Assembly: GCA_025934435.1 (NCBI GenBank)
Contig: JAICYB010000001.1
Location: 1-64,000, forward strand
Length of the DNA: 64,000 bases
Direction: 5' to 3'
From: Actinomycetes bacterium
Lineage (GTDB): Bacteria; Actinomycetota; JAICYB01
The position numbers and the translations under genes were made by a program. Below the pieces are notes generated by a model, which saw nothing but the letters and a program-made list of their open reading frames with translations, made no database searches and was not told the DNA's origin. Positions 6,040 through 31,335 of this stretch are shown here, in pieces; the first letter of the stretch is position 1, and every line of letters begins with the position of its first letter.

Positions 6040-7239
6040 CTATCCGGAAGAACGGGCGGAGTCTCCATCGGCGCGGTCCCGCGCGATCAGACCAAGCCCA
6101 CGCCGAACGTCGACCGCTTCGATCGTCTTTCCATGCGCGAGGCGATTTCGTGCTCCAGCGAGCCAGTCGACCAACTTACGCCGAGACGTAGGTGTCCTAA
6201 GAGCTGGCGATTCTCTGATCAGGCTCGCGAGGGGCCCGATCTCCAAGGATTCAAAGTCTCTACCCGTCCAAGCTGGCCCGACTCGGCTCGCATGCGCCGC
6301 TACCCATTGGCCGATGCGACGGCGCTCCAACTCGATTCGCGGAAACAACACGCGGACTTGGGCAACCCAGACACATCGTGGCAGCGCGAGTTCGTCGCTT
6401 GCGGTCTCGCAACAGACGTGTTGCTCTAGACCCTGCCACCACTCGACCGCGCCGACCGACCAAGCTTCGAGTAGCTCTGCGGGCGGGCGCTCCGGACGAC
6501 GGTCGTGGCGAGTCAGGTGAAAACCCGTCCTCACTCGATCGCCTCCGGTTCGGACGTAAGCAGCCAGCTGCTCTCGAAGCTCGAGAATCGTTCCGTCCCA
6601 CGTACGCGAGAGGTGATCCGCCAAGTCCAGATCGAAGCGCGCCACCTCGACGATGACGTCACGATCCTCATCGCTTCGGTCCACGGTTGCGTCGACGTAT
6701 GCCATGGTGTCCAGTCGTCCCAGTACGCCCCACCACCAACGGTGTCTTAGATTCAAATCCTTCGGCGGTAGCGAGTCTGTGTCCTCTGGCGCAACGATCG
6801 TTAGGAAGACGGTTCGGTTGCGAGTGCTGACCTCTTTGGCTATCGCGCTGTATTCGGCTACGAACATCGACCAACGAGCGAGCTCTTGTTGTGCCGAGCC
6901 CGTTGCGTCGATGATTGCGATTCGCCTCCCGAGATTTGGATGGAACGCAAGCGTCCCCGCATTGACGACTTCGCCCGGGTACTCACGCCTGAGCCCGAAG
7001 GTCTCATACAGACCGTCAACCACGGGGCCTTCCCGTCCGGCGAGTGCTGATAATTCGATGTCGTAGCGATCATATGCATCGAAATGCGGTTCTTGCAGAG
7101 CCGCAGCAAGTACAGACGCGCCATGTTTCGGAATGACGACGAACACGCAAGAACCATCCAAGAACTCTTCGACGAGCGCTGAAAAGAATCTTCTTACACC
7201 GGGAAGTTCAAGCCGTGGGTTGGGCGCAAGGGGGAGCAC
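6040..7239 (-). CDS. Operon-terminal protein with HEPN-like motif
   Basis: This 399-aa protein starts with GTG five bases after the stop of the giant ATPase gene and has GAGG just upstream, so it is the last gene of the operon. Residues 1-170 resemble a nucleotide-binding fold without a clear P-loop: CVFVVIPKHGASVL, then GRRIAIIDATG and RTVFLTIVAPED in the places of core strands. Near the C terminus is LAGARNRLAHGKTIEAVD. RNRLAH matches the R-x4-H motif of HEPN ribonucleases in a suitable helical setting. If real, this would be the RNA-cleaving toxic effector of the system. This is an inference from one short motif; the rest of the protein is not recognised. Confidence 0.6.
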   Translation of the reverse strand: MLPLAPNPRLELPGVRRFFSALVEEFLDGSCVFVVIPKHGASVLAAALQEPHFDAYDRYDIELSALAGREGPVVDGLYETFGLRREYPGEVVNAGTLAFHPNLGRRIAIIDATGSAQQELARWSMFVAEYSAIAKEVSTRNRTVFLTIVAPEDTDSLPPKDLNLRHRWWWGVLGRLDTMAYVDATVDRSDEDRDVIVEVARFDLDLADHLSRTWDGTILELREQLAAYVRTGGDRVRTGFHLTRHDRRPERPPAELLEAWSVGAVEWWQGLEQHVCCETASDELALPRCVWVAQVRVLFPRIELERRRIGQWVAAHASRVGPAWTGRDFESLEIGPLASLIRESPALRTPTSRRKLVDWLAGARNRLAHGKTIEAVDVRRGLGLIARDRADGDSARSSG

Positions 7240-13495: not shown

Positions 13496-14734
13496 CTAAT
13501 TGGTGGGATCGAGTAGCCACCACTCTGACGTTTGTGTCAGAGACACGATGGCGCGGTTATCCTCCTCGGCGTCACTTAGAACAGCATCCAGGATGCGCAA
13601 TCGGTCTCCGGGACGAAAGACTGTGGAGTCGCTTGGCGTCCGGAGCAATCCGTTCCTGCCGTGCGAGGTTACGTCAATGTCCCAGCTCTTTGGACCGTGC
13701 CTCGCAACTATCAAGACAGCGCAATCGCCGAATGGCGCGGGCGATAACTCCTGTCGGGAGCCTGCTGGAAGCGCCTCGAGGAAGGGCCAATACTCGCTAC
13801 ATAGGTGTCGCACAGAGCACCAGCCACACAGATCGACCCCGGGCCGTGCCATCGGAAGGTCTACAGCAACCTGAGACTCGACAGTCTCAGTGCGGTCGCG
13901 AAGCGCAGCGGCGAGTTCCGCCGTCTCGGCCAGTGTGGGTGGTTCAACCTGAACAGTCGAATCGGTGTAGACGAGCGAGAGTTCTGTCGCTGGCAGTTGA
14001 CGGGGATTGAGATCAGCATCGTATGCCCATAGAACGGCATACATCCGAATCTGGTCGATGTGGAGCGGTGACGGTGCGCCAGTCTTGTAGTCCACGATCG
14101 CGCAACCATCGCCCTTTACACGTATGAGGTCGGCGCGGCCCGCGAGCCGAAACTCTGGAGCGCGAAGCTCTACTTCCGGGTGCGATCCAACAGATAATGG
14201 CTGACGCTTACTGATTGGGCCAGTTGCGCCGCCCGTGATAGGCGGGATGGGGTCCGGCGTCGTGGCGCGTGTCGTTCGTGCCACTACATCCTGAATGCGC
14301 GTCCGCATCTCGGGTACACGGTTCTTCAGATCGGCGCGAAGGGATTCAAGTCGGTCGACCGCGCGCGGATTGCCTTCATATTGTCCGAGTGTCTGTTCAA
14401 TCGACCGCTCGATGACGGCTGAGTAACCACCCAATGAGCGCAAGACGTCGACGGCACATTCGGACGCTAGGGCGTGGCAACCCGCGTTCGCGAAGGCTGT
14501 GACAAGCGTCTCAAAGGTCCGGTGCATCACATCGCCGACGAGAGCTGGCGTCGACGGTTTCGGTGGGTAACCGGATCGGTCCCATACGCCGATATAGGTC
14601 GCTCGACGGAGTGCCCATCGTCGCGGGCACGACTCGGCTTCCTGGAGGCTGGAAAAGCTCCACGCGTTCGGAGGACTCGGCCACTGACCGCTGATGCCAT
14701 CGACGCCCGTTGCGAATCGATCCGCCTCCGTCAC
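13496..14734 (-). CDS. RecB/Cas4-like PD-(D/E)XK nuclease with Fe-S cysteines
   Basis: This 412-aa protein is a PDDEXK_1-family nuclease. The catalytic core is visible as LAGRADLIRVKG followed by AIVDYKTGAPS (the Asp and the D-x-K pair, ~200-217) and QIRMYAVLW, the following Q-x3-Y helix. Cysteines flank the domain as in AddB and Cas4: one in ESCPRRWALRR (~36) and three in CGWCSVRHLC (~300-312), together fit to hold a 4Fe-4S cluster. These enzymes cut DNA, usually from an end and together with a helicase. Its ATG overlaps the stop of the DruE-like helicase gene (ATGA at 14731), so the two are made together and probably work together. Confidence 0.85.
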   Translation of the reverse strand: MTEADRFATGVDGISGQWPSPPNAWSFSSLQEAESCPRRWALRRATYIGVWDRSGYPPKPSTPALVGDVMHRTFETLVTAFANAGCHALASECAVDVLRSLGGYSAVIERSIEQTLGQYEGNPRAVDRLESLRADLKNRVPEMRTRIQDVVARTTRATTPDPIPPITGGATGPISKRQPLSVGSHPEVELRAPEFRLAGRADLIRVKGDGCAIVDYKTGAPSPLHIDQIRMYAVLWAYDADLNPRQLPATELSLVYTDSTVQVEPPTLAETAELAAALRDRTETVESQVAVDLPMARPGVDLCGWCSVRHLCSEYWPFLEALPAGSRQELSPAPFGDCAVLIVARHGPKSWDIDVTSHGRNGLLRTPSDSTVFRPGDRLRILDAVLSDAEEDNRAIVSLTQTSEWWLLDPTN

Positions 14735-17700
14735 GAACGTACCAAGTCGAGAACTCGACCCGTTGCGGTCGGCAGACTGCGGCTAACCACTATCTCATCG
14801 AGCAGAACAATCGGAGTCGTCGTTCCGAGTTCCTTGGCATCGCGGAGCGCCTGATCTGCAGCGTAGTCGGGCGTTAGCGGACCGTGGACGCCGACGATGA
14901 TTTCGCGATCCGAGAGTGTTGCGAGAATAGGTGCTTCAATCGGGCCAATTCCGATGACATCGACTCGAGCATTTCGCGTGAACGTGGCGTCGGAAGGCGC
15001 TTGTCGACAGAGGTCCTCATACAACTTGTCGAGGGCGGTCTCGATTCGCTCTTTTGCTAACTCGGGCGCATTTCCGTCGAGAAGATAGCGAAGGAGGCTT
15101 GCTCCTAGGTGCCTATCAAGATGGATGTGCTCAAAGCGATTCTTAAAACTCCTCAGGCAGCGGTAACACGAGAACTCACATTGCGCAGGACAGTCCTCTA
15201 AGAGCAAGAGCGCTTCGCGATAGAGATTGGTCCCAAGCTCGGCTACCCTTCGTGAGAAACCCGCACCACCGGGTAGTGTGTCGTACATGTAAATCTCGGC
15301 TGCGACACCTTCGCTCCCACCAACAAGGGCCGGGCGAAATTCAGCTTGCAACTCCGTGGAGTCGATGCCGAGCATCCGCGTCGCAGCGAGACTAAAAGTC
15401 TCCGAGAGAGTCCGCAACGCGACGTCCGTAGCGAGATCTCCCGGCTTGAGCGTGACCGGGCGGCCTACTTCGATACGCACCAACAAGACATCGGATATGA
15501 AGTCGGTTCCCAATACGACGCCACGCGACGCACGGCCACCCGGGCAATCCGGCTCGCGTTCATCTGGGAAGGGTTTCCGGTGAGAACCAGCGACAACTCC
15601 GGTTGGAATGGCGGTCGGTTCGATACGACCACACCGCGTGCAATAGGTGTAACCCTCTCCGCGTGGTCCGGTATTCGAGACGAGGAGGTGCCGCCGCAAG
15701 TAACTCTGACGAATCTGTTCCGTGATTCGGTCCCAATCTTCGACTGCTGGAGGGCCCGATGCGAGCAGTTTCGCTCGAGTCGCGTAGCTCGTCGGAGGCT
15801 GATCTTCGATTGCTGTGCGCGGGTCCTCGTCGGATGGATGGGCAAACCCTGGGGGGCGCATCCAGTACATGGCCTCGCCGAACTTTGACTGAGCGCCGCA
15901 CGCAGGGCAGTCCTGTACTTCGCCCCGCTCCGCTTCAGAAGTCGATTGAGTGCGAGCATACCGACAGACTTCGCATTCGAGATACAGCTTCTTGTTAGAC
16001 CAAGCCTGAAATCGGTCTTCGCTAATCGGCGAGAAGATTGCGCCAGATCGCCAAAGCTTGCCGTCAATCCAGACATTCTTCATTGGAGCGTATTGCGTCA
16101 ACGCAACGGGAAGCCCCTGACTCGGGGAATATTGGTACTCCGGACGGTACGGGGCGGATCGGTCGACATCAAAAACATAGAATCCGACGACATCAGTAGG
16201 AAAGGCGTACCGCGGGAGTACTCCCTTGTAGAGCAGGCGATCGAGGAGGTTCTCTGTCGAGCGCCTCGGGTCTGTCCGTTCTTCGCCTTCCTCCGGCGGC
16301 GCTTCTGTGACCTCAGCGTCATCCGCCTCCTCAATTTCACGAGAGGAGGCTTCCGCGGTTTCCGGTTCGTCAGGTTTGCCAATCGCCCAGTCGATGGACC
16401 TGACCGTGGCGTCTACGAACCCGTCCAATATCGCCGAACGATCAGACGAACTGAGTTCACCAGGAAGCCAATCATCAATTCCCGTTCTTAATGCAGAGGC
16501 GTTCTGGCGGAGCCAGGCTTCGAAGTCGTTTCGGTTCAGCGCGCCGTTGGTGCGGAAGCTCGCAACCTTTCCGAGCACTTCAAACAACTGGGGTTGACTA
16601 TCGGGATCTATCTCGGGCAATCGAGCAAGGTGATATTGCTGCAATAGGAACGCCGTCACGTGGCGCCCGGCAAGTTCCGCGTTTGAAAGAGTCAGCGTCG
16701 GATCTTCGACGCGACCCCGAATCATCTCTTCTGGATCAGTGAAGTAATTCTCGTCGTGGCTATCGGCGCTGCCGAAGGCCAACACCGTCGCGACCGCGTT
16801 CCCACGTCTTCCAGCGCGGCCGGCGCGCTGTTGGTAGTTCGCTCTAGAGGGCGGCAGATTCCGGAGAGCCACGCCGGAGAGCGTTCCGATGTCGATTCCG
16901 ACCTCCATAGTTGTCGTACTCGACAAGACATCAATCGCAACGGCGTCGTGCGAGCCTGCACTAACGTCTATGTCCTGAAATAGCAGTTCGTGCTCTTCGG
17001 CCTTACTGAAGACTTCATCCGCTTGCGCCGCGTTCAGCTGAGCCGTGTGTTCGGCCGCAATGATTGCCATCGGCGAGTAACCCGTTCGCTCGAGTGCACG
17101 AGTGGTGCTTGCACGGTAGTAGCCTTTGCGAGCCTTGAAAACGGAGTCATTATCCGGATCGACGCTCTCAACGGTGTTGCGAATGCAGTTGACGCAGCGA
17201 GCTACGCCTGGGAAAGGACGCTGCGTCGTACGACAGAGACGGCAATATGCCCACGAACCATCTAACTCCAATGCCAAGTGACGCGCGAGTAGACGGTTCT
17301 TTCCGGGTGCGCGTTGCTCGCAGAAAAGTCTCAAGAGTTCGGGTAACCATCGCCGGCGGAATTCTCGCTTGTGTCCGGCGTCATCGAGCCACTGGTCCAT
17401 CTTCTGGAATGCACCTGAGTGCGGACGAACGCCACCCTTAGTACGCCACCAGCTGTCCGTCATGTTCCGGAACCAAACCCCAGTGTTCCGCAAGGTCCAC
17501 TGGCTCATCCAGATCCGCGCTAACGCGACTTTTGAATCGTCTGACTCAGCAAGGCCGGGGATATCAGGTAGCTGAAGGAGCTGTGGCGTAAGGTTCTGCC
17601 GCTCTCGTAACGATGCGAGAGCGAGCGACTGAAGTCCCCAGAATCGATCCGACAGTGTCGTGATTATTCCCCGCAACAGAGACTCAGGAGGCGGTTCGTT

Positions 17701-20280
17701 GCACGTATCGCGCAGCTGTAGGATTTCGGCGCGGTCGTGAAGAAGTCCACGTTCGATGACGCTAGCGACCTCTTGCATGGGTTGGAGCGTCTCGGTGCCC
17801 TTGAGGACCGGACGCAGCCGCACACCGAGTAGCTCGGCACCGACCAACGCCGCGAAGTAAAGATCCTCGAGATTGAGGCGGTCCGAGATTGAAGCATCGC
17901 TGGCGAGTTCCTGCCAGCCACGGACGAGAACAGGACGTAGAACGTCTTGCATTGAGTACGTTTGCAAGTTCGGTGCGAGACGGGCGGCGGTTTGGCGGGA
18001 GTCCGAAAAGACGAGGACCTTCCTGCCGCGCAGTGGTGCGAACCGAGTAGCGGCCTGCGGCCCGGGAGGTTGAACTTCCAGCTGGCGCGTTATTAGCGCT
18101 TGAAAGGGTTGGTCACCCTTTGTTTGGTGGTCTTGCACTGATGATCGTTGGAACCCAGCGCGTTGGCCACACACACCGCACGGCGTGAACTGCCCCAAGC
18201 CTTCCTCGTTGGCATCACCATCGTCCTCATCGTCATCGGTAGAAGCGTTTCGTCCGGAGCGGTCGAGTCGTATGAAGACCCTCCGCGTCCGTTCTCCAAG
18301 TGAGTCCGGATTGAGTCGTCCTGTGACTAGATCAAGGTCGCAAGGTTCGGTCGGCTCGATGGGCTCTTCGACCAGAAGGTCAAGCGCTTGGAGTTCGGTG
18401 ACCGGACCACCCGATGCTCGGAACGCGGCTCCGGCCTCTTCCCACAGGAAGGTCGGCCGTGCTAAATCGTCCGTGTAGGCGCGAAGGTAGGCGGACCCAC
18501 AATGCCGGCACGTATACAGTTCGAAGACGCGAGCGCCGCATCCACACGTCGAACGAGGCTGAGCGTACAGGGTCCCAACGGGGGCCAGTCCCCGTTGCGT
18601 TTCGGCAAGCTCCAAGCAATTAGAATCCGCACAAGCCCAGAGGCCGGGGAGGCCGCGGAAGAAGGCGTGCACGCGGCATGGCAAGAGTCCGGCGTCAGAA
18701 CCTCGAGCGCGCGCAGCGCTAGCGAGAGCGACGAGAACTGTCATTGCCCGATCCGCGAGAGAACGGTCATTCGTCTCGAATAGGTTGGTTCCGAGCTCTG
18801 ACAACCTGCGTGCGGTAGTCATGGTGCTATTTACAAGAAGGTTCAACACAGGAAGGTCGGCAAGCGCGTCGTACAACGCACTCGCTGCTGATTCACTGGA
18901 CGATATGCCCCGGTATGCAAGAAGAGACTCCAAGGCTTCGCGCCGTTGGTTGTCGTTCGCGGCCTTGTAGTACGCGTCTAAAGAGACCGTGTCCAGCGCA
19001 CGCGCGTCGGCTTCGGTGCCTTTCGTCGCCGGTTCACGCAGAGCCAAATCGCCGCCAATCGCAACGAACTCCTCCGCACTCTTACCGGTAAGTTGCGCTG
19101 CGAACTCCTTCGCGTACTCGAGCCGGTCGAAGCTCGCGCTTGTGCAGATGACTTGAAGGCGCTCGGCAGGAATACCAAGTCGATGACGCAGCCGACGCAG
19201 GAGCAATCCGACCTCTGCACCCGCAGCTCCGCGATAGAGATGGGCTTCGTCCACGACGAGCAAGAAGTGCTCCTGTGGATTCTCACGTAGCCAGCTTTCG
19301 GTCGCCTCAAAGATTGGCCGCTCAAGCGGACGCATGAGCATGTACTCGAGCATGGAGTAGTTCGTCACCAATACATCAGGTGGGCTACCTAGGGACTCAT
19401 GGCGCGTTAGTAGTTCGGAGTCCTCATGTCCGAGTACCGCTCTAACGAACTCACCATTGCGCTGCCACCGTGTCCCCGGTTCCCCGTACCATCCTCGGAT
19501 GTCCGGTTTTGCAGGCCACTTTCCCCGCGCCCGCAACGCTTCAATCAGGTGTGCCGCTCTTTCTCGCTCATGCGGATCTCTGCTCTCCGCTGCAGCAACG
19601 ACATGCGATACGTAGAAGTCGCCGATTGGTTTGAGGCGCTTTTGGTCCTTCTCTCGCTTACGCACGCCCGGATAGAGAGTGCGGCTGGTGTACCGGGTGA
19701 AGCGGGCCGGGCGGCCTCCCCATTGAGTAAAGAGCGCAGTGACGTTTGGGTGACCTAACCGCGAACGCAGTCGACCGAGCTGGTCATTAACGAGCGCATT
19801 CATGGGATAGAGCAGAATCGTCCGGACCGCCGGACTTGCGAAAGATTGCGGGCGCGTCCGTGCCTCGATCGCAAGGTTCGCGAGCATCGGCAACATGAAG
19901 GCCTCTGTCTTTCCCGAGCCCGTTCCCGTTGCGACGACAAGGCTTTTCCGGTCGGCGATTGCCGCCTCGAGAGCCTGCGCTTGGTGCGTGTATGGTGGAT
20001 CTCGAAACAGTGGTTCACCAAACGCTTCCCAGCCCGCCATACGGCTTAGCAGTTCAGTCGCCGCGTCGGGCAGGCGAAGGTCGGCGAGGGAAGGACCGGT
20101 CTGGTACCGCGGCGTACTTTCGATGTACGGCTCCCTAAACGTGCTTCCTTCGGCGTCGAGCAGTGTCCGCCTGCGGCTTACTAGCTCGGGAGAGCCGACG
20201 TGATAGGTCGCCTCTATGTAGTCGCGGAGCGCCGAACGAATTTCCTCTACGGTGCCACTTATCGTGAGTTCAGTAGTCAT
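14731..20280 (-). CDS. DruE-like SF2 helicase with DUF1998 end
   Basis: An 1849-aa DEAD/DEAH-box protein. Motifs in order: TGTGSGKTEAF (motif I, ~117), VVDEAHLYRG (motif II, ~342), zinc-knuckle pairs CRHCG and CGVCG, DVLSSTTTMEVGIDIG (motif V), QQRAGRAGRRG (motif VI, ~1150). The C terminus is DUF1998: YDTLPGGAGFSRRV and a CPAQC...CYRCL cysteine cluster. Size and layout match DruE of Druantia systems, which is around 1800-2000 aa. The start at 20280 has GGAG eight bases upstream and lies eight bases after the previous stop; the longer upstream frame overlaps that gene and is less likely. It presumably translocates on or remodels foreign DNA. Related DUF1998 helicases also occur in other defence systems, so DruE is the best but not the only match. 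Confidence 0.88.
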   Translation of the reverse strand: MTTELTISGTVEEIRSALRDYIEATYHVGSPELVSRRRTLLDAEGSTFREPYIESTPRYQTGPSLADLRLPDAATELLSRMAGWEAFGEPLFRDPPYTHQAQALEAAIADRKSLVVATGTGSGKTEAFMLPMLANLAIEARTRPQSFASPAVRTILLYPMNALVNDQLGRLRSRLGHPNVTALFTQWGGRPARFTRYTSRTLYPGVRKREKDQKRLKPIGDFYVSHVVAAAESRDPHERERAAHLIEALRARGKWPAKPDIRGWYGEPGTRWQRNGEFVRAVLGHEDSELLTRHESLGSPPDVLVTNYSMLEYMLMRPLERPIFEATESWLRENPQEHFLLVVDEAHLYRGAAGAEVGLLLRRLRHRLGIPAERLQVICTSASFDRLEYAKEFAAQLTGKSAEEFVAIGGDLALREPATKGTEADARALDTVSLDAYYKAANDNQRREALESLLAYRGISSSESAASALYDALADLPVLNLLVNSTMTTARRLSELGTNLFETNDRSLADRAMTVLVALASAARARGSDAGLLPCRVHAFFRGLPGLWACADSNCLELAETQRGLAPVGTLYAQPRSTCGCGARVFELYTCRHCGSAYLRAYTDDLARPTFLWEEAGAAFRASGGPVTELQALDLLVEEPIEPTEPCDLDLVTGRLNPDSLGERTRRVFIRLDRSGRNASTDDDEDDGDANEEGLGQFTPCGVCGQRAGFQRSSVQDHQTKGDQPFQALITRQLEVQPPGPQAATRFAPLRGRKVLVFSDSRQTAARLAPNLQTYSMQDVLRPVLVRGWQELASDASISDRLNLEDLYFAALVGAELLGVRLRPVLKGTETLQPMQEVASVIERGLLHDRAEILQLRDTCNEPPPESLLRGIITTLSDRFWGLQSLALASLRERQNLTPQLLQLPDIPGLAESDDSKVALARIWMSQWTLRNTGVWFRNMTDSWWRTKGGVRPHSGAFQKMDQWLDDAGHKREFRRRWLPELLRLFCEQRAPGKNRLLARHLALELDGSWAYCRLCRTTQRPFPGVARCVNCIRNTVESVDPDNDSVFKARKGYYRASTTRALERTGYSPMAIIAAEHTAQLNAAQADEVFSKAEEHELLFQDIDVSAGSHDAVAIDVLSSTTTMEVGIDIGTLSGVALRNLPPSRANYQQRAGRAGRRGNAVATVLAFGSADSHDENYFTDPEEMIRGRVEDPTLTLSNAELAGRHVTAFLLQQYHLARLPEIDPDSQPQLFEVLGKVASFRTNGALNRNDFEAWLRQNASALRTGIDDWLPGELSSSDRSAILDGFVDATVRSIDWAIGKPDEPETAEASSREIEEADDAEVTEAPPEEGEERTDPRRSTENLLDRLLYKGVLPRYAFPTDVVGFYVFDVDRSAPYRPEYQYSPSQGLPVALTQYAPMKNVWIDGKLWRSGAIFSPISEDRFQAWSNKKLYLECEVCRYARTQSTSEAERGEVQDCPACGAQSKFGEAMYWMRPPGFAHPSDEDPRTAIEDQPPTSYATRAKLLASGPPAVEDWDRITEQIRQSYLRRHLLVSNTGPRGEGYTYCTRCGRIEPTAIPTGVVAGSHRKPFPDEREPDCPGGRASRGVVLGTDFISDVLLVRIEVGRPVTLKPGDLATDVALRTLSETFSLAATRMLGIDSTELQAEFRPALVGGSEGVAAEIYMYDTLPGGAGFSRRVAELGTNLYREALLLLEDCPAQCEFSCYRCLRSFKNRFEHIHLDRHLGASLLRYLLDGNAPELAKERIETALDKLYEDLCRQAPSDATFTRNARVDVIGIGPIEAPILATLSDREIIVGVHGPLTPDYAADQALRDAKELGTTTPIVLLDEIVVSRSLPTATGRVLDLVRS

Positions 20281-20288
20281 TCGTGCTC

Positions 20289-21374
20289 CTATTCCAGGGC
20301 AACCACAAACCACATCAGTTCTCGAAGAAAGGTGAGTTCTTCGTCCAGTTCCGTGCGTGGGACGACGCAAGAGAAGAGAGCACCTCGTGAGCGAGGTGCC
20401 TCGGACGCGATCACATCAAGGCGTCTTTGAACCCATGTCGGGACTGGACCAAAGAAGTCGATCCGCGCGCTGACGGCGTCCGCGTCCCCTACTCTCACCG
20501 TCTGTGGGTGCCCGCACTGTTCATCGATAGCGGCTTGCAGCCTCAAAGCCTCATCGGCGCCTCGGGCAACGGGATCGCCTACTGGAAGATCGAGTATGCG
20601 TTCCACCTGACCGTCGGAGAGAGTTGCGTAGCACCAAATATCTGAGCCGAACTCCTGAGGTCGCCTTGCAACAAAGCTCCCACTGTCCGCACGACGAGGT
20701 CCTCGCCAGCGACCACTGTAGTAATTGACAGGCAAAGCTGGATCGAGAATCCGTAGGTCTGGAATGTCTCCGGCCGGTCCGCGAGCGCTCAGCCGAGCAT
20801 CGTAGTCTGCTAGCAGCTCTACTGCCGGTAGGGGCCGTGGCACACGTAACCATTGCTCTATTCGGAGGCGGCGCAGTCCGTTTAGTTGGAGTGCGTCTTC
20901 GATTCCACTCGGATCGACGGATGTGAGCTGGCGTATGTGAGCATTGTGGACTAGATGAACGTTGGCATCGTCGGCGATTAGAGGTTCACCGTCTGGCCTG
21001 ACGCCGAAGACGAAGCAACCGCGCGTCTCTCTTCGGACGTATGAGGGAGTGCCCAGATACAGGACCCGACGCTTCGGCCCTTCGGGTTCGTCCGCGACCG
21101 AAAGTTCAACCAGGTCGCCGATGGCGATAAGTGACTCGATCGTCTGGTCGACCAACGACGAGCAGTCGGCCCCGATATTCGGCAAGCCAATGATGGTGCG
21201 AGTGACGAACTCCGAAAGGCGCCGTGGGGTAATGGGACAGACGAACGACGCAGCTCGTCGAACCAGACCTGCGAGGGCCTCTGGAGCCACGATGCTCTCT
21301 GGAATCGGCTCCACGTCGATAGTGTCGAGCAGGGCCTCAGCAGCAGTGGCCGGATCTAGGCGCTCTACGGCCAT
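20289..21374 (-). CDS. Unknown defence-operon protein, 361 aa
   Basis: Not recognised. The ATG at 21374 overlaps the end of the 949-aa gene by ten bases, and the stop lies eight bases before the helicase start, so it belongs firmly to the operon. The protein has a helical first third (RRLSEFVTRTIIGLPNIG), which could be a winged-helix-like unit, then a strand-rich middle (RVLYLGTPSYVRRETRG) and a C-terminal part containing DIWCYATLSDGQVERIL. No catalytic motif or membrane segment is visible. By position it occupies the place of the small DruB-DruD genes of Druantia type I, but I cannot claim homology. Confidence 0.6.
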   Translation of the reverse strand: MAVERLDPATAAEALLDTIDVEPIPESIVAPEALAGLVRRAASFVCPITPRRLSEFVTRTIIGLPNIGADCSSLVDQTIESLIAIGDLVELSVADEPEGPKRRVLYLGTPSYVRRETRGCFVFGVRPDGEPLIADDANVHLVHNAHIRQLTSVDPSGIEDALQLNGLRRLRIEQWLRVPRPLPAVELLADYDARLSARGPAGDIPDLRILDPALPVNYYSGRWRGPRRADSGSFVARRPQEFGSDIWCYATLSDGQVERILDLPVGDPVARGADEALRLQAAIDEQCGHPQTVRVGDADAVSARIDFFGPVPTWVQRRLDVIASEAPRSRGALFSCVVPRTELDEELTFLRELMWFVVALE

Positions 21375-24214
21375 CGCCAGCCCCGAAAGACTGAAATGGA
21401 GTCCTCGGATTGCGCCAGATGTGTTCCTATTACGACGCACCGGGCTGCGCGTAGAAGGACAGGCGAGACAATTACGAGATTGATGTAGTAACTCAACTCA
21501 TCGTCATTGACACGCGACATCACCCCGGGATCACTCGCCAACTGAAGCAAGAACTCTGCAAGAGAGAGGTCCACCGTGTCGACCCCTGCTTGTCCGGCTG
21601 TTGCAGCGAGGATTTCGGCGAATCTCGATACTCTCTCCGAGAGCTGGGCCGTTGCGAGGTGCGGTAGCTGTTCAGCTAACGCTCCTGCTATTACGGCTTG
21701 GTAACCGCCATGTCGGCCTAGTTCTGTGGTTAGCCCGTGTAAGGCCGACGAATCTGCTTCTAATACTTGTCGTTCTTTGTTGATCCAGTTCGGCCCAGCC
21801 ATCAGGCCGGTCAACGCTCGCGCGATAGCTCGAAGAACGTGCAGCCACGACGTCGCAGCAAATGGGTTCGCCGGAAGCTTCGCTTCGCGCCAAATCCTCG
21901 CGATGCCAATTGCTTCTCGAACTCTCGCTTCGTTCTTTGGCCCAAACTCAACTTCAGGTTCTGTGAGCACTGTTGATCGCAAATCATGGAGGTCACGAAC
22001 CATCGGAGGAAGGACGACTCCTGACGACAGCGAGTTAGAGAGAGCGCGGAAGAGTCCGCCGTCGGCGTGTCGCGCGACGCCAAGGTCGTCGAGCTCGAGG
22101 GTGAACTTCGCGGACGGGCTCCGGAATGAGTACGCCTCAACCCTCGTCGCTGCGGCGTCCGTGTTGTCAATGAGGCGGGCGAAGGGACCCTCGTGGTCCT
22201 CACCTAGTGACCAGCGCAAGGCAGTGAATTCACGCTCGCATTGGATAGATACAGACCCGATTGAACTGTGGGAGACGGTTACGAACGCAAGGTCGGCATG
22301 GTCGTAGCTCCGTTGCAAGGGAGGCGAGGAACGGGCCGACGCAAAGACTCTTGCCCATGCCGCATCATCGATCGGCAATGCGCCAGAGACCGTGGTGTCG
22401 GCGATTGCACGGATGGAGCGTGTCCCTAGAACGACTCGCACCTTAACCTCGGCGCCGGCGGGGCCGTCAATCGCTAGCGTCCCCCGTCCATCCCAGAGTT
22501 CCTCCAGCGTCGGCCGTCCTGGGCTCGGAACAATCGTCATTGCTTCTCGACCTGAACCGCTCGCAGTCCACGGGTGCGGCGGACGGATTCCCACGAGCAA
22601 CCGGCCTTCCGCGATCGCGCGCTCTCCCTCGGGAGGCTTCAATAGCACGTCGACCTGGTGTTCCCCCACCTCGAGGCTTGAAAGTCGAACGTAAGTCTCC
22701 GAGCCAATCCAGTCGATGGCGTGAGGAATGCCATTCACTTTGATATTCGCTTCGCGCACGGCACGTTGCGAGCTAATCGCAATGATTGGGTCGTCCCCAG
22801 CAACCCACTCGGCGACGCCTTCGCCATCCCACTTGGCCGGCAGAACGGCGACAGGCCGTACTTCTACCTCTGCGACAACGCTGATTGACATGCGTTCGAG
22901 GAGTTCGAACTCCTCGTCGCTTATTACGCCAGGAACGATGACGACGAATGCATAGACGCCTCTCGTGCAGCATTCCGTTCGCCGTATCCAGTCGGGGAGT
23001 TCTCCCGGCCACTCTTTGCTTAGCAGGACGCATTGGTTCCCTGGCCGTACGAAGAGTCCCCGCACCTGGACCGCGGTTGTGGAATCTGTCGAACGAAAGA
23101 GCCACTTTGGGCCGGGAGTCAACATGCAGCTCTCTGCCAGGAGCGCGTTGAGTCGAGGTGAGCCTTGGTCTGCTTGTATCAGAGGCGCCGCGGGGTCAGG
23201 CCAATAGTCGAGCGTTAGTCTCTGGTTTGGAAAGAGCAGCCGTCCTGTTGCGAGTCGGCCGTCAACTCCGGCAACAGTCGATCGCAAATGACGAAGTTCG
23301 TCGTGGAACGCAGGATATCGCTCGCCGAGGGTCGTCAGATCCGGTAGTTCAATCATGGCGGTCCATCCACGCGGACCGCGTTCCAACAGGATGTTGGGGT
23401 CTGTTAGCGATAGCGATTGCTTTTGGACATCGCGAGTTCCGGTGGTCGGCGCTTTCGCGGGCATGAACCCGCGCGTCCGTACTTCACTCGCCACGCGCTT
23501 CGCGCCCCGTAGAAACCTTGCTGCTTCCCGCTCCTTCGATAGGTCTGAAACTATGCGCTTTAGTGTCGCGCCGAGGATGTACGGAGAGTTATCGTCGTCG
23601 CCCGTCAGAAGGGCAGCCGCGACTTGCCCGAGCAGTTCGGTGTTCTGCGCGAAGTTGTAGAAACGCGACGATGTCCCGTAAGACCGACTCGCTAGTCGCT
23701 TACCGAGTTCTCCCGGGGACTCGAGAATTGCCGCGTTAAGGGCATATCGGTAGTCATAGAGAATCCGTGCTAATTGGCGCTGTAGGTCGGTCGGCAGTAT
23801 GGCGTGCGTTATCGGCCACGCGATGATTCGGAACCACTCGGCCCAGGCTCCTCTAGGCTGCGCACCACGGAACTGAGCGGCAAATTCACTGAATCGAGAA
23901 CGGACATATTGCCTTGCCGCATCCCCTTGCCACGACCACCGCGGCGTTCTTTCCTCGAATGTTGGCCAATACTCATCGCCTTCGTACTCATAACCCAGCT
24001 CTGCGGCGTAGATAACTAGGGGCAACCAAGAGCTGGAGCGCCAGCGGCCGGCGAAGACCGACTCCTTTACTAGGCCCTGAAGCTCCTCGATCTCTGGTAT
24101 CGAGAGCCCGTGCTCCAAAGCAAAGACCGGCAACGTCGGGTCGACTGCGTCGCGGCTAGCCCGCAAAGCTTCGAAATGCTCCGTGAGCCTGTGATGCAGG
24201 TCCTGAAGTGTCAT
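21365..24214 (-). CDS. Unknown large defence-operon protein, 949 aa
   Basis: Not recognised by function. The N-terminal third is helical and contains YWPTFEERTPRWSW and EWFRIIAWPITHAILPTDLQ, which look like conserved blocks. The middle is rich in beta strands, with Ig-like features (VRLSSLEVGEHQVDVLLKPP), and the end is helical. No nuclease, ATPase or membrane motif is visible. I chose ATG 24214; a TTG codon six codons upstream is possible. The gene follows a 288-base gap after the DruA-like gene and overlaps the next gene. It may be a DNA-binding or scaffold subunit; that is a guess from its size and place. Confidence 0.6.
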   Translation of the reverse strand: MTLQDLHHRLTEHFEALRASRDAVDPTLPVFALEHGLSIPEIEELQGLVKESVFAGRWRSSSWLPLVIYAAELGYEYEGDEYWPTFEERTPRWSWQGDAARQYVRSRFSEFAAQFRGAQPRGAWAEWFRIIAWPITHAILPTDLQRQLARILYDYRYALNAAILESPGELGKRLASRSYGTSSRFYNFAQNTELLGQVAAALLTGDDDNSPYILGATLKRIVSDLSKEREAARFLRGAKRVASEVRTRGFMPAKAPTTGTRDVQKQSLSLTDPNILLERGPRGWTAMIELPDLTTLGERYPAFHDELRHLRSTVAGVDGRLATGRLLFPNQRLTLDYWPDPAAPLIQADQGSPRLNALLAESCMLTPGPKWLFRSTDSTTAVQVRGLFVRPGNQCVLLSKEWPGELPDWIRRTECCTRGVYAFVVIVPGVISDEEFELLERMSISVVAEVEVRPVAVLPAKWDGEGVAEWVAGDDPIIAISSQRAVREANIKVNGIPHAIDWIGSETYVRLSSLEVGEHQVDVLLKPPEGERAIAEGRLLVGIRPPHPWTASGSGREAMTIVPSPGRPTLEELWDGRGTLAIDGPAGAEVKVRVVLGTRSIRAIADTTVSGALPIDDAAWARVFASARSSPPLQRSYDHADLAFVTVSHSSIGSVSIQCEREFTALRWSLGEDHEGPFARLIDNTDAAATRVEAYSFRSPSAKFTLELDDLGVARHADGGLFRALSNSLSSGVVLPPMVRDLHDLRSTVLTEPEVEFGPKNEARVREAIGIARIWREAKLPANPFAATSWLHVLRAIARALTGLMAGPNWINKERQVLEADSSALHGLTTELGRHGGYQAVIAGALAEQLPHLATAQLSERVSRFAEILAATAGQAGVDTVDLSLAEFLLQLASDPGVMSRVNDDELSYYINLVIVSPVLLRAARCVVIGTHLAQSEDSISVFRGWRWP

Positions 24215-24502
24215 CTCTGCGGCAAGAGGCAAGAGCTACCAACCGACAACGGTCGCCGGACCACCGCGGCAGCAATCCGACGAATAGCCAGGGCGCGGCG
24301 GAGAGAGGACGCCAGAGCGTTACCCCCTTTTGGCATATGACGCAATGGGACTCTACCTATCGAGCGTTTGCCATCCAAAGACCAAGACTGGAACGGAGTG
24401 GAAGTTCCGTTTTCGAAGTAAAGGGGGGGGCGGGTAGCCGTTCGGTGGCATTTGCGCCCCCACGGACCCCACGCAGACGTGTCCCGTTCGCCAGGCGAAT
24501 CT
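24215..24502. other. Gap between DruA-like gene and 949-aa gene
   Basis: No gene is supported here. The stretch holds a run of eight G (24423-24430) flanked by A on the left and C on the right, and a short imperfect repeat near 24390-24410. It may contain an internal promoter. The G run could be length-variable. Confidence 0.35.
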
Positions 24503-26464
24503 TCAGCTCTCTCTGTACGCGCTGGCGGTCGGGACGACCGGGACCCGCGCGGCATGGCAAACGGGCCTCCGCGTCGACTGTTGCGCAATTGAATGAAGAA
24601 CATCCTCGCGTCCGATCCGCTTTACGAGCCATCGCTCGAACCACCAGTCAACTATCTCTTTCACGTCGTCCTTCTTATCGACGTTGAAGAGATACCGCGG
24701 ACTGCCGGCGTGACCGAGCAGATAGGGCAACAGGTTATGGACAAGTGAGACCCCGTAAACGAGTCGTGTCCTTCTGTGCTGAAGCAAATCTTCAGACGGC
24801 CAGCCCAGCCGATCGATTCCTTCCCGAATCTTGCGGAGCTTGGGACTGGCACCCTCACCGAAGATGCTATTTACGCGACTGCCATTCTCCTGTTGCTCAG
24901 ACAGTTCGACGAGCGCTCTGACCGTCGGCTGACTGAAGTGAGATGTTCCGAACGAGCGTGAACGGCCGAGTTTTCGAAAAACGACGTCGGCTCCGCTCTT
25001 GCCACCCAACACTTCGGCGGGGATTCGGACGCGGTTGTACTGGCTGGATGAGCGACCGTAGAGCGAAGTCGTTCCGATGAAAGCCAAATTGGATTCGCGC
25101 TGAATAGGGCGGCCAGCCATAGATGAAGCGATTTCGCTTTCGTAATCGCCGTAACGCTTCTTGTAAGCCCGTATCACTGTAGGACTGACAGCGAGCATGC
25201 TGACCAGCTTGCCCGCGAGGAGCGAGTTATACGGCGGCACCGCTCCACACACGACAAGATCGGCAATCTCGGTGCCGACCGCTTCGGCCCTTGCGCGCCG
25301 CGTGATTGCGAGAACCGCACGCCTGGCCTCGGGACGTTGCAGCGCGTCGGCGAGGCGGTGTGCGGTCGGACGATCCAACAAACTTCGCCCGAGCGCCATG
25401 CGGCATTGCAACAATTCGGCTAAGTAAAGGCAGCGCTTACTCCGGTACAAGTCGGACTCAGCTCTCGCTTGCCAGTCAGTAGATCCATTCTTTGATTTGA
25501 GGTCAGTGCTCCGAGCGAAGCGATGATGGTCGCGTCGTCTGACCGCGGCTTCCGTGCGAAGACGTTCCACCGCAGCCTCAGTCGGTTCGTCCCAGAGCGA
25601 AGGCCAGTACAGGCCGTCGCGGATTAGGTCGTCGACGTACGTCTCAGAGAGCCCGCGATTAAGTCGTTCCACGACCCAACGCGCTGTCTCCGCCGTCGGC
25701 TCTTCCCGCATACGTTCGAGGACCTGGTCTGACTCCCAACCGATCCAGACGTCTCGTTCGCGAATCTGAACAACGGCGCTACCGAGCGCGCCGATGCCGA
25801 TGACAGGATGGAAGGGGCTGATCTGATCGCGCACAAGGAAAGCAAGAGTTCGGCCCGGTGTTGTCTGGTACTGATTCGACCACGTGTGTCGAAAATAGCG
25901 CCAGACATCAAGCAGCCGAAGCCCGGTGAGCTCGCAACGCATCCCAGGTTCCACAACTTGCACGTACGGATCGACGACGCTTCTCGAGTCAGCTTGCCCG
26001 CTCGCCTCAAACTCCTTCAGGCGTCGAACGAGGTCCTCGCCGTCTCTCATGAGGTCAAAAATAGACACAAATCTGCCATTCCACTCCGATGGGCGCTCCA
26101 TTTGAGAGACGAACCGACGGACGGCAGGCGACGAGAGCTGTTCATCCCGCGCGCGGAGTTCCTGTCTTCGTACGCGCTCGCGCTCACGATCCGGGTCGAG
26201 TTCCACAAGCGGTGGCGTCACCATGAGCGAACTCCCGCTTTGCAATTCAACACGCCACCCGTCCGCTATGAGGTCAGCGACCAAGCTGACGGCTGCTCGA
26301 ACGACGACGTCGTCATCTCGACTGAGGACGGAGACGACGGAGTCCGAAGAGCCGTCTCTCGAGATCAGTTTTTCGACGTGCCGGACGAACCGCCGTCGTA
26401 GCGCGGACGCCACCGGGAGCGCCGGGAGCTCGATTGAGGCGGAACAGTCCGAACAGTCCATCAC
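24503..26464 (-). CDS. DruA-like protein (DUF4338)
   Basis: This 653-aa protein fits the DUF4338 family, to which DruA of the Druantia anti-phage system belongs. Blocks I recognise are DVWRYFRHTWSNQY, HPVIGIGALGSAVVQI followed by DVWIGWES, then CGAVPPYNSLLAGKLVSML, IGTTSLYGRSSSQYNRVRIP and VNSIFGEGASPKLRKIREG. It is longer than the roughly 400-aa DruA of type I systems, with an extra N-terminal region opening with a CSDC cysteine pair. The biochemical role of DruA is not something the sequence settles. The ATG overlaps the stop of the GHKL ATPase gene (ATGA at 26461), so the two are translationally coupled. Family call fairly sure; function inferred from context. Confidence 0.78.
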   Translation of the reverse strand: MMDCSDCSASIELPALPVASALRRRFVRHVEKLISRDGSSDSVVSVLSRDDDVVVRAAVSLVADLIADGWRVELQSGSSLMVTPPLVELDPDRERERVRRQELRARDEQLSSPAVRRFVSQMERPSEWNGRFVSIFDLMRDGEDLVRRLKEFEASGQADSRSVVDPYVQVVEPGMRCELTGLRLLDVWRYFRHTWSNQYQTTPGRTLAFLVRDQISPFHPVIGIGALGSAVVQIRERDVWIGWESDQVLERMREEPTAETARWVVERLNRGLSETYVDDLIRDGLYWPSLWDEPTEAAVERLRTEAAVRRRDHHRFARSTDLKSKNGSTDWQARAESDLYRSKRCLYLAELLQCRMALGRSLLDRPTAHRLADALQRPEARRAVLAITRRARAEAVGTEIADLVVCGAVPPYNSLLAGKLVSMLAVSPTVIRAYKKRYGDYESEIASSMAGRPIQRESNLAFIGTTSLYGRSSSQYNRVRIPAEVLGGKSGADVVFRKLGRSRSFGTSHFSQPTVRALVELSEQQENGSRVNSIFGEGASPKLRKIREGIDRLGWPSEDLLQHRRTRLVYGVSLVHNLLPYLLGHAGSPRYLFNVDKKDDVKEIVDWWFERWLVKRIGREDVLHSIAQQSTRRPVCHAARVPVVPTASAYRES

Positions 26465-28050
26465 ACAGCGTTATAGAAGGCCGCGCTGACATCGCTCCAA
26501 AGGCGGCGTTGGTCTCTCAGAAGGGTACGTCGAGTGGCCTCGTTGGCAGCCGAGGCTTCTGCACGGGCAGTTGCTAAGACGAGCATCGTCAATAGGGTCG
26601 CCCACTTCTGATCCCGATCTAGGTCGCTCGACGCCAGAGGTCCCAACAGGTCTCGAAATATTGGGTGTCGTGAGTTGAGGAGGAGGCATAGCTGGTTATC
26701 GCGACGCACAAAGTCGAATGCGATTGCGTCGGTCAGCTCGGCGACTCGAACAAGGTAGGGCGCATCCTGCCGCCCCAAATCGTCGAGGAGCGACTCATAC
26801 GCGGTCGCCTCACGTCTGCGTACTGGAGGGAGTCGCGGGAGCGAACGGTCCGCTGACGCGGCACGGCGTTCGGCTTCCCGCAGCGAAGTGTGGACCTTAA
26901 GCATCTCGAACCGACGGCGGACCCGAGAATTCAGTGCACGCGCCACCTGTTCTATGTCTGACGCGAGGGTCTCGATCAGTGCCTGGCGAGGCACGATGCG
27001 TTGCTTTGAATTTGTTATGCCGAAGAACTCGTCAAGTGTGGGGTCGAACGCAATCTCACATCGCCACCAATCATCGTAGTTTTCCCGTCGTTTGGAACCC
27101 ATGAAGTACCAGCCATGATCGATTTCGCGACCGGCACGAACAATGGAGACTGGTGAGCTACGCGTGAGGCCAAGTTTTTGCTTCTCGGAGTTCGTCAGCC
27201 CATGCCAATCTTCGACGGGCAACTCCGCGAATCGAACCACCACTTCACCCGGAGCTCCGCTGATGCTCGTCAGCTGGTAGCGAAGTGCATCGCCAAACAA
27301 GCGACCGCCATTGACTACCGCATTCTTCTGGATGCACAGCGGGTCATACGGGGGAATCTTCTTTCCATTGAGCGTCAGCTTCAGCCGGGTTCCAATGAAG
27401 TGTCGGTATATTCGGCCGAGATCGTGCTCGAGACGTGTCAGGAGCGAACTCCTCCGACGGTAGTCGAGTCGGTCGCACTTCAAAAGCCGGACGGCGGAAC
27501 CTTGGGGCGACTTGCCAACGAAGTCAGGAGGCACCACGCGTTTCGGACTAGGAATCGTGACGTAAGTGCCCTGTACGACTTCGTCAAAGTCGAGGTAAGT
27601 CCAGAGCACCTGCCGACCACGCCAAGAGTAGAGTTCCGCGCGTCTGGCCTGACTGAGGACCCCGTTAGGGAGTCCCATGCCAAACCGTCCGAGAGATGAA
27701 CGGTCCCCGAATCGCGTAGTCCCGCCAAACGCTAGCGCCTGTTGCATGTGGCGCGCGCTCATGCCGGCACCATCGTCTGTAACGACGATCTCAATCCCGT
27801 CCTTCGATGGAGTCAGGACATCAATCGTCACTCGACTAGCTCCAGCTTGAATTGCATTGTCGACGAGCTCAGCCATTGCAAACGAAGTGCTGCGATAGCC
27901 GGAGTCTCGCGTGGCCGAAAAGAAATTCTCTACGTGGACAAGCCGTCCGACGTCCTTCATGCGGGGCTTGCGGAACGTTGGCGTCGTCGGTTCGGAGGAA
28001 ACGACGGCTCTGCGTCTTGCACCCCGGGGCGACACTTGCCGGGCCTTCAC
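26461..28050 (-). CDS. GHKL (MORC/Hsp90-like) ATPase
   Basis: This 529-aa protein has the GHKL ATPase fold at residues ~50-150: MAELVDNAIQAG (N box with catalytic Glu and Mg-binding Asn), TDDGAGMS (G1), and SLGRFGMGLPNG (G2). There are no phospho-accepting histidine or receiver domains, so it is not a sensor kinase; the layout is nearer to MORC and MutL-like ATPases, which close around DNA on ATP binding. The GTG start has GGGAGGT upstream at good spacing. It is the first gene of the defence operon. MORC/MutL-type ATPases are known in other defence operons, but this one beside DruA is unusual to my knowledge. Confidence 0.85.
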   Translation of the reverse strand: MKARQVSPRGARRRAVVSSEPTTPTFRKPRMKDVGRLVHVENFFSATRDSGYRSTSFAMAELVDNAIQAGASRVTIDVLTPSKDGIEIVVTDDGAGMSARHMQQALAFGGTTRFGDRSSLGRFGMGLPNGVLSQARRAELYSWRGRQVLWTYLDFDEVVQGTYVTIPSPKRVVPPDFVGKSPQGSAVRLLKCDRLDYRRRSSLLTRLEHDLGRIYRHFIGTRLKLTLNGKKIPPYDPLCIQKNAVVNGGRLFGDALRYQLTSISGAPGEVVVRFAELPVEDWHGLTNSEKQKLGLTRSSPVSIVRAGREIDHGWYFMGSKRRENYDDWWRCEIAFDPTLDEFFGITNSKQRIVPRQALIETLASDIEQVARALNSRVRRRFEMLKVHTSLREAERRAASADRSLPRLPPVRRREATAYESLLDDLGRQDAPYLVRVAELTDAIAFDFVRRDNQLCLLLNSRHPIFRDLLGPLASSDLDRDQKWATLLTMLVLATARAEASAANEATRRTLLRDQRRLWSDVSAAFYNAV

Positions 28051-29869: not shown

Positions 29870-31174
29870 CTACGCGGACGCTTCGTCGGCCACGTCGGGC
29901 GGCGTCTCGACGAGATTGAGGACCCGGTCCATGACTGCCCCTGCTTCCTTATCCCGCATCGCACGGTATTCGGAGTACCGGCGGAGCATGTGTGAGGTCC
30001 GCCAGCCGAAGCGCCCCATCATCTCGGTCTCGGTCAAGTACGGAGCGACCGATGTCGCCGCGTAGTGACGAAGCTGGTGAGGATGAATCTTCACGCCGGG
30101 TGGCTCGCCCTTGTCCTTGTTCTCTTTGTCGATCCGCTTACCGATGCGGCGGAAGCGCGCACTGATCGTCGACGGGTAGAGCGGGACTTCACCGAGCGGG
30201 TGAGCGGAGAAGATGAATGCATCGCGTGGGTAGGTCTCCAGCATGCTCCGGCGGGCGCGACCGTCGAGCTCATCAACGAGCACTCTCAGGACGGCGACGA
30301 CACCTTCACCGATCGCGACTTTGCGCCGACCTGCAGGCGTCTTCGGCTCTTTCACGATGACCTTCGGTCCATCGATCCGCTTCCCGTTGAAGTCCTTCGT
30401 TCGCCGGCGCCATGTAACCGAGGCCCGGAACCAGACCTGACCCTCGTCGAGTAGCACGTCGCGTCGGCGAAGCGACAGGACTTCGCCACGGCGGGCGCCG
30501 GTCGCGGCGGACAGCAGCACGTAGGCGAAGAGGGCGAAGTCCATCTCCTGCGCCTTCTGCAAATACCTTTGGACGTCCGCGTCCTCCGGCACTTCGACAG
30601 AGCGGTCATCCGGTTTCGGGCGCTCCTGGACATCTCTCGCGACGTTCCACCGGATGTAGTCGGCCCGCCGCGCGAACTCGAGGATCTGGAAGATTACGCC
30701 GGCGACGTGAGCGATCGTCTTCGCAGAGAGGCCGTCACGCGTGCCCTTCTTGGGCAGCTGAAGTTGCGCGTAGTGCCGCTCGAGGTCGATCGCCTTGAGC
30801 TTCCTGACGCGCTTGTCCCCGAGCTCCGGCAAGATGTGGTTCTTCACCATCCCGTGCGCTTGGGCGAGCGTCGCGTCGCTCACCTTTCCGGACGCCTCCT
30901 TGTGCAGCAGCCATTTCGTAGCCACGGAACGGACGGTCGCATTCGCCTTTTGGGAGGGAACCTTTCCTTCGAGGACCTCCGCGACGAAGATCGAGAGCTG
31001 CCGGCGGGCATCCTCGTCGTTCTCTGCCCGCGCGTTCTTCGTCTGCTTCTTCTGAAGCTCCGGGTCCCAACAGGACATCTCGATCGAGCCAGGGGTTCGC
31101 CAGCGGTACGATCCGGAGCCTTTCGGCCTGCGCGGTCTGGGCCTTCCTGCGCTCGCCACGAAACCCTCACTCAC
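29870..31174 (-). CDS. int: Tyrosine site-specific integrase
   Basis: The C-terminal catalytic domain shows the expected residues: first Arg in ATGARRGEVLSL, H-x-x-R in HPHQLRHYAAT, and the nucleophilic Tyr in HMLRRYSEYR. The N-terminal part has an arm-binding-like region (GSGSYRWRTPGS) and a SAM-like core-binding helix domain (KWLLHKEASGK). I chose the GTG at 31174, which has GGAAAG upstream; an in-frame start at 31243 is possible. The gene lies beside the 3' end of the tRNA-Val gene, the usual attachment site of such integrases, so this enzyme most likely inserted the whole island to its left. Confidence 0.9.
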   Translation of the reverse strand: MSEGFVASAGRPRPRRPKGSGSYRWRTPGSIEMSCWDPELQKKQTKNARAENDEDARRQLSIFVAEVLEGKVPSQKANATVRSVATKWLLHKEASGKVSDATLAQAHGMVKNHILPELGDKRVRKLKAIDLERHYAQLQLPKKGTRDGLSAKTIAHVAGVIFQILEFARRADYIRWNVARDVQERPKPDDRSVEVPEDADVQRYLQKAQEMDFALFAYVLLSAATGARRGEVLSLRRRDVLLDEGQVWFRASVTWRRRTKDFNGKRIDGPKVIVKEPKTPAGRRKVAIGEGVVAVLRVLVDELDGRARRSMLETYPRDAFIFSAHPLGEVPLYPSTISARFRRIGKRIDKENKDKGEPPGVKIHPHQLRHYAATSVAPYLTETEMMGRFGWRTSHMLRRYSEYRAMRDKEAGAVMDRVLNLVETPPDVADEASA

Positions 31175-31262
31175 TCTTTCCGATAAGTGGCAGTTACGGT
31201 GGCAACACTGCCGTGAGGGAGTGACAACGTCAGCTGAGAACACGCTGACCTCGGAAAATTCG

Positions 31263-31335
31263 TGGGCGTGGCAGGAATCGAACCTGCGACCCCCTGGTTG
31301 TGATCCAGGTGCGCTAGCCGCTGCGCCACACGCCC
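31263..31335 (-). tRNA. tRNA-Val (CAC)
   Basis: The 73-base gene folds as a complete cloverleaf: acceptor arms GGGCGTG and CACGCCC with A as discriminator, T arm GCAGG-TTCGATT-CCTGC, and anticodon stem CCTGG/CCAGG around the loop ATCACAA. Anticodon CAC reads GUG (valine). No CCA is encoded. Its 3' end faces the integrase gene, so it is the probable integration site. The gene is intact. Confidence 0.93.

What the first reader, a model, noticed from the sequence alone, without database searches (positions are those of the whole stretch)
24503..28050. GHKL/MORC-like ATPase translationally coupled to a DruA-like protein
The ATGA overlap at 26461 ties a MORC/MutL-like ATPase to a 653-aa long-form DruA. 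MORC-type ATPases close around DNA, so the pair could be the recognition step of the system. The DruA-like protein has an extra N-terminal region beginning with a CSDC pair that the shorter family members lack.
Basis: partly seen in the sequence, partly recalled or inferred. Interest (0 to 1): 0.6.

Follow-up and report, generated by a model that had tools for sequence, protein, structure and literature searches.

The report
MORC-like ATPase paired with Druantia DruA
A clamp-like ATPase gene sits directly upstream of a long-form Druantia DruA gene in all 84 sampled close relatives of that DruA, and the two evolve as one exchangeable unit attached to different phage-defence engines; no paper found describes this.

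Summary
The two genes are real. A 529-aa GHKL ATPase (26461-28050, -) overlaps a 653-aa long DruA (24503-26464, -). The junction reads GTGATG, not ATGA. Four more genes follow: a 955-aa protein with no family, DruD, DruE and a RecB/Cas4-type nuclease. This is a Druantia type I-like operon without DruB or DruC.

I searched with DruA alone. All 80 best genome loci and all 4 viral contigs have the ATPase directly upstream, across many phyla. The 4-base overlap recurs in 52 of 80. ATPase and DruA distances correlate strongly (partial r 0.80), as do DruD and DruE (0.72), with little between the two blocks. The pair is often a separate operon, convergent with DruE in 45 loci. It also occurs with DruB-C-D-E-like genes, SNF2/NERD helicases, DndFGH-like genes, or no helicase. 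It looks like an exchangeable module that takes the place of short DruA.

The ATPase is paraMORC-type: MORC2 is the closest solved structure, but the MORC signature is absent. The CSDC pair is not conserved (0/80). Long DruA without the ATPase exists in haloarchaea and Hymenobacter. A DNA-recognition or loading role is plausible but untested.

The parts
26461..28050 (-). GHKL/paraMORC-type ATPase, 529 aa: disordered N-terminus, GHKL domain, S5 domain, long helix and C-terminal alpha/beta domain
   Evidence: Pfam HATPase_c_3; profile and fold nearest MORC2/3/4; AlphaFold2 pLDDT 89; E61, D64, N65, D92, G94, G96, G121, G124, G126, K349, Q350 at 97% or more in 66 sequences
26459..26464 (-). stop/start junction GTGATG coupling ATPase and DruA
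24503..26464 (-). long-form DruA (DUF4338), 653 aa (652 from ATG at 26461)
   Evidence: PADLOC PDLC00001 E 2e-201, Pfam DruA; AlphaFold2 pLDDT 91
21365..24232 (-). X955, 955-aa protein in no library; likely start near 24214
   Evidence: no Pfam/PADLOC/NCBIfam match; homologues in 48 of 80 loci and in Nitrosococcus L038
20289..21440 (-). DruD, likely start near 21374
   Evidence: PADLOC DruD1 E 3e-100
14731..20370 (-). DruE, YprA-type helicase; likely start ATG near 20280
   Evidence: PADLOC DruE1 E 0; Pfam DEAD, Helicase_C, MZB
13496..14734 (-). PD-(D/E)XK nuclease of RecB/Cas4 type with four conserved cysteines; 4-base overlap with DruE
   Evidence: Pfam PDDEXK_1 E 2e-20; H71, E187, D202, D215-x-K217, Q228-xxx-Y232, C36, C303, C306, C312 at 96% or more in 28 sequences
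29870..31243 (-). tyrosine integrase beside tRNA-Val (31262-31335): setting of the island, not part of the mechanism

Best explanation
The paraMORC-type ATPase and long DruA form one functional unit, made as a coupled pair. It is an input module of a Druantia type I-like anti-phage system and takes the place that short DruA alone has in canonical systems. Most likely mechanism: the ATPase dimerises on ATP binding and closes around DNA, as MORC and MutL do. DruA, a GNAT-like protein with an added helical insert, is its partner and reads the DNA or the clamped state. The loaded pair then licenses the downstream machine (DruE helicase, DruD, X955 and the RecB/Cas4-type nuclease) to unwind and cut the DNA. 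Shown: obligate linkage in this DruA clade; recurring start/stop overlap; co-evolution of the pair apart from DruD-DruE; attachment to different downstream sets; intact ATPase and nuclease motifs. Inferred: physical complex, DNA clamping, recognition role, recruitment of DruE, anti-phage activity of this variant.
For: ATPase directly upstream of DruA, same strand, in 80/80 loci found with DruA only and in 4/4 viral contigs. 4-base overlap possible in 52/80. Partial correlation of distances 0.80 for ATPase-DruA and 0.72 for DruD-DruE, at most 0.20 between blocks, in 45 loci. Swap with short DruA on two backgrounds: short DruA-X955-DruD-DruE in Nitrosococcus against ATPase-DruA with the same genes here, and DruA-B-C-D-E in E. 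coli and P. putida against ATPase-DruA with DruB-C-D-E-like genes in L079 and L096. DruE-like helicase within the held flank in 57/80. ATPase nearest MORC2-DNA and MORC4. Weak DruA fold matches are dominated by acetyltransferases, and DUF4338 is called a GNAT domain fused to DndF in PMC10853773. A related paraMORC3 ATPase needs its ATPase site for phage defence (VcSduA, PMC12137116).
Against: No complex was predicted or measured. DruA fold matches to the PDB are all non-significant (best E 0.45). Long DruA without the ATPase exists in haloarchaea and Hymenobacter. The 80 loci are the best of 257 relatives, so more distant ones could differ. Eight or more ATPase-ATPase-DruA loci and a few others show no helicase within the flank held, so the pair may not always serve a helicase.
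Confidence: 0.55

Rival explanations
1. The ATPase-DruA pair is a defence system of its own that only shares islands with Druantia operons.
For: The pair is its own convergent operon in 45 loci; its tree signal is separate from DruD-DruE; L045, L054 and the two-ATPase loci lack a detectable helicase within the flank held; the Roseivivax plasmid L045 carries the genes without DruE.
Against: Where DruE is present it is usually a near neighbour, across phyla and in several orientations (57/80); in the window all six genes run in one direction; X955-DruD-DruE loci with short DruA (L038) suggest that the set needs a DruA.
Confidence: 0.2
2. DruA is a GNAT-like acyltransferase that modifies DNA or protein, and the ATPase loads or activates it; the pair marks or modifies a target rather than sensing it.
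For: 38 of the top 50 weak PDB fold matches of DruA are GNAT-fold acetyltransferases; DUF4338 described as GNAT.
Against: No match is significant; no catalytic residue or acyl-CoA site was established; DUF4338 is also fused to or paired with DndF-like ATPases, which fits an adaptor equally well.
Confidence: 0.15
3. The ATPase is an Hsp90-like assembly factor for DruA or DruE and has no role on DNA.
For: GHKL plus S5 architecture is shared with Hsp90, which appears among the fold matches.
Against: The best matches by sequence and fold are MORC and MutL, and it is absent from the Nitrosococcus locus with short DruA and a close DruE.
Confidence: 0.06
4. The linkage is accidental or only reflects shared recent ancestry of the loci.
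For: All loci share homologous DruA and may descend from one ancestral pair.
Against: DruA identity to the window runs down to 36% across Actinomycetota, Acidobacteriota, Proteobacteria, Bacteroidota, Verrucomicrobiota, Myxococcota and Gemmatimonadota, while the neighbouring genes are rearranged and exchanged around the intact pair.
Confidence: 0.02

Closest known systems
Druantia type I (DruA-B-C-D-E; E. coli, P. putida)
   Same: DruE1, DruD1 and DUF4338 DruA are clear homologues.
   Different: No DruB or DruC; a 955-aa protein in their place; DruA is the long form with a paraMORC ATPase before it; an extra RecB/Cas4-type nuclease. Canonical E. coli and P. putida loci have short DruA and no ATPase.
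MORC / paraMORC ATPases in restriction-modification operons (Iyer 2008, PMC2292703)
   Same: GHKL plus S5 ATPase beside a superfamily II helicase and a nuclease; intact motifs.
   Different: The MORC signature is absent (0/76); the partner is DruA and a YprA-type helicase, not a combination described in the parts of that paper read here (first two of four).
DndF with fused DUF4338 / DndFGH-like systems (PMC10853773)
   Same: DUF4338 joined to or adjacent to a defence translocase module; haloarchaeal long DruA lies before DndF-G-H-like genes.
   Different: There the ATPase partner is missing.
VcSduA, paraMORC3-type Shedu (PMC12137116)
   Same: GHKL clamp ATPase needed for phage defence, proposed to control a PD-(D/E)XK nuclease.
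   Different: Single fused protein without DruA or helicase.
MzaB of the MZA system
   Same: Nearest PADLOC model for the ATPase (E 3e-15).
   Different: Covers only the GHKL part; NCBIfam score 63.7 against a cut-off of 850.

Membership tests
Druantia type I | DruE of type I | tested here: met
   PDLC00013 DruE1, E 0
Druantia type I | DruD | tested here: met
   PDLC00010, E 3e-100
Druantia type I | DruA with DUF4338 | tested here: met
   PDLC00001 E 2e-201; Pfam DruA 104 bits, cut-off 27
Druantia type I | DruB and DruC present | tested here: not met
   No PADLOC match for any operon protein; X955 against DruB and DruC profiles has HHalign probability 0.1 or less, with small alignments
MORC family (strict sense) | GHKL plus S5 ATPase module | tested here: met
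MORC family (strict sense) | GhXhhpXXRhl motif in S5 (PMC2292703) | tested here: not met
   0 of 76; the typical sequence is GVSIxRAGRE[IV]
paraMORC ATPases | intact GHKL motifs, S5 domain, helicase and nuclease neighbours, no MORC motif | tested here: met
paraMORC ATPases | assignment to paraMORC1-5 | not tested
   reference sequences of these subfamilies were not assembled
MZA system | MzaB above curated cut-off | tested here: not met
   63.7 bits against 850
GNAT fold (DruA core) | significant structural match to a GNAT enzyme | tested here: inconclusive
   38 of the top 50 PDB matches are GNAT-fold, all E > 2
GNAT fold (DruA core) | acyl-CoA binding or transfer | not testable with these tools
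   needs biochemistry

The most novel reading that the evidence does not exclude
The paraMORC-DruA pair is a stand-alone recognition or DNA-loading cassette that has been exchanged among mechanistically different anti-phage effectors: YprA-type Druantia helicases, SNF2/NERD helicases and DndFGH-like translocases. It would be a shared sensor module of prokaryotic immunity and would give DruA, until now without a known role, a function as partner of a MORC-type DNA clamp.
Probability: 0.4. Interest if true: 0.75.

Novelty: new variant of a known kind. Interest (0 to 1): 0.58.

Why it matters
How type I Druantia recognises phage is unknown, and I found no held paper that assigns DruA a role in it. 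An obligate partner of a well-understood ATPase class gives a direct hypothesis (DNA clamp plus reader) and a clean genetic test. It also places a MORC-type ATPase, a class linked to silencing of foreign DNA in eukaryotes, inside a Druantia-type operon. Current typing tools would miss the ATPase and the 955-aa protein, because neither has a defence model of its own.

Tried and rejected
ATPase as a diverged DruB: rejected, because L079 and L096 carry the ATPase in addition to DruB/C/D-like genes. X955 as a DruB-DruC fusion: no profile support, but alignments were small. MORC proper: signature absent. Zinc-binding CSDC N-terminus: not conserved. Direct repeats marking the island ends: none at the tRNA-Val site in 1-31360; the window starts at the contig start. 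PDB sequence search for DruA: no relative. Literature for Druantia with GHKL or MORC: no held paper.

Full report
What is there. On the minus strand six genes run head to tail: ATPase (28050-26461), long DruA (26464-24503), X955 (24232-21365), DruD (21440-20289), DruE (20370-14731) and a nuclease (14734-13496). PADLOC identifies DruA1, DruD1 and DruE1, and finds a Cas4/DruK-like match in the nuclease. It finds no DruB or DruC, and nothing for X955. The operon lies beside a tyrosine integrase and tRNA-Val.

Linkage. I built an alignment of long DruA proteins and scanned one genome per species with DruA only. Of 257 relatives the best 80 were kept. In all 80 a homologue of the ATPase lies directly upstream on the same strand, including short contigs where it is cut. 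The hosts include Actinomycetota, Acidobacteriota, Proteobacteria, Bacteroidota, Verrucomicrobiota, Myxococcota and Gemmatimonadota, with DruA identity to the window down to 36%. An NTGA stop/start overlap is possible in 52 of 80. In viral contigs 4 of 4 long DruA genes are preceded by the ATPase. In the reverse direction, the three viral contigs with close ATPase relatives all carry DruA, while more distant GHKL relatives do not. The ATPase superfamily as a whole is broader: other members sit in cysteine desulfurase/DEAD/PLD operons. The link is a property of this subfamily.

Exceptions. Haloarchaeal plasmids and Hymenobacter carry long DruA without the ATPase, before DndF-G-H-like genes; three of the haloarchaeal loci have DruE on the other side. 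In one actinobacterial genome (G382, L031) a related ATPase precedes a short DruA without DruE nearby.

Module behaviour. In most actinobacterial loci the pair is convergent with nuclease-DruE-DruD-X955; elsewhere it is co-directional or divergent (45 convergent, 8 co-directional, 3 divergent, 1 downstream of DruE). Other partners are DruB-C-D-E-like genes (L079, L096), X1013-SNF2 with NERD helicase and a second YprA-type helicase (L060 group, Leisingera, Paracoccus), DndFGH/SspFG-like genes (L055), or a second GHKL ATPase without a helicase in the held flank. X1013 is a homologue of X955 (HHalign probability 100). Short DruA with X955-DruD-DruE in Nitrosococcus, and short DruA with B-C-D-E in E. 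coli and P. putida, show the alternative state. On 45 complete loci the distance matrices of ATPase and DruA correlate at 0.94, and at 0.80 after removing DruD and DruE. DruD-DruE gives 0.92 and 0.72. All cross-block partial values are 0.20 or less. These matrices are not independent observations, so the values describe a contrast and are not p-values.

The ATPase. All GHKL motifs are kept in the family (E61, D64, N65, D92-x-G94-x-G96, G121, G124, G126) together with K349-Q350 of the S5 domain. By profile the best solved relatives are MORC2, MORC3 and MORC4, then MutL. The AlphaFold2 model (pLDDT 89) matches MORC2 with DNA best (E 3e-14). The MORC signature GhXhhpXXRhl (PMC2292703) is absent in 76 of 76: the family has RE[IV] in place of R-hydrophobic-[LIV]. 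It is therefore paraMORC-type. A paraMORC3 protein, VcSduA, needs its ATPase site for phage defence (PMC12137116).

DruA. The model is confident (pLDDT 91). It has no significant PDB match, but 38 of the top 50 weak matches are p300/CBP, MYST or GNAT acetyltransferases (my count). PMC10853773 calls DUF4338 a GNAT domain. I treat the GNAT fold as likely and any enzymatic activity as unknown. Long DruA adds an N-terminal extension and an insert at about residues 254-400. The CSDC pair was found in none of the 80 relatives.

Nuclease. The 412-aa protein keeps a RecB/Cas4-type active site and four cysteines in 28 sequences. DruE of type I has been predicted to carry an inactivated Vsr nuclease (PMC12458937), so this protein could supply the cut. 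It was detected in only 30 of 80 loci.

Conclusion. This is a Druantia type I-like system with a paraMORC-DruA input module and X955 instead of DruB-C. The pairing is well supported. That it is a DNA clamp that recognises phage DNA and loads DruE is the most likely reading, but it is inference. No held paper joins Druantia with GHKL or MORC; subscription papers could not be checked.

Noticed in passing
window 29870-31335: Tyrosine integrase next to tRNA-Val: the operon probably lies in an integrated island; no matching attachment repeat was found in 1-31360.
   Followed up: partly
window 2424-6029 (+): RecD-like helicase matching the candidate defence family PDC-S68 over its whole length (E 0).
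   Followed up: no
window 6040-7239 and 7245-12974 (-): Two adjacent large ORFs (399 and 1909 aa) with no Pfam or PADLOC match.
   Followed up: no
L048, L050, L051 (haloarchaeal plasmids): Long DruA before DndF-G-H-like genes, divergent from a DruE operon: a Druantia-Dnd hybrid without the ATPase.
   Followed up: partly
L111, L112, L115-L119, L124, L130, L044, L045: Two different GHKL ATPases beside DruA, most with intact motifs and no helicase in the held flank in most: possibly a heterodimeric clamp.
   Followed up: partly
L124:13183-15492: E2-E1(ThiF)-JAB fusion protein near the ATPase-ATPase-DruA genes.
   Followed up: no
BFVD A0A3G4ZXG3 (Faunusvirus), A0A5K0UAJ3 (Yasminevirus): Predicted proteins of giant viruses share the DruA fold (E 8e-9 and 6e-8).
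   Followed up: no
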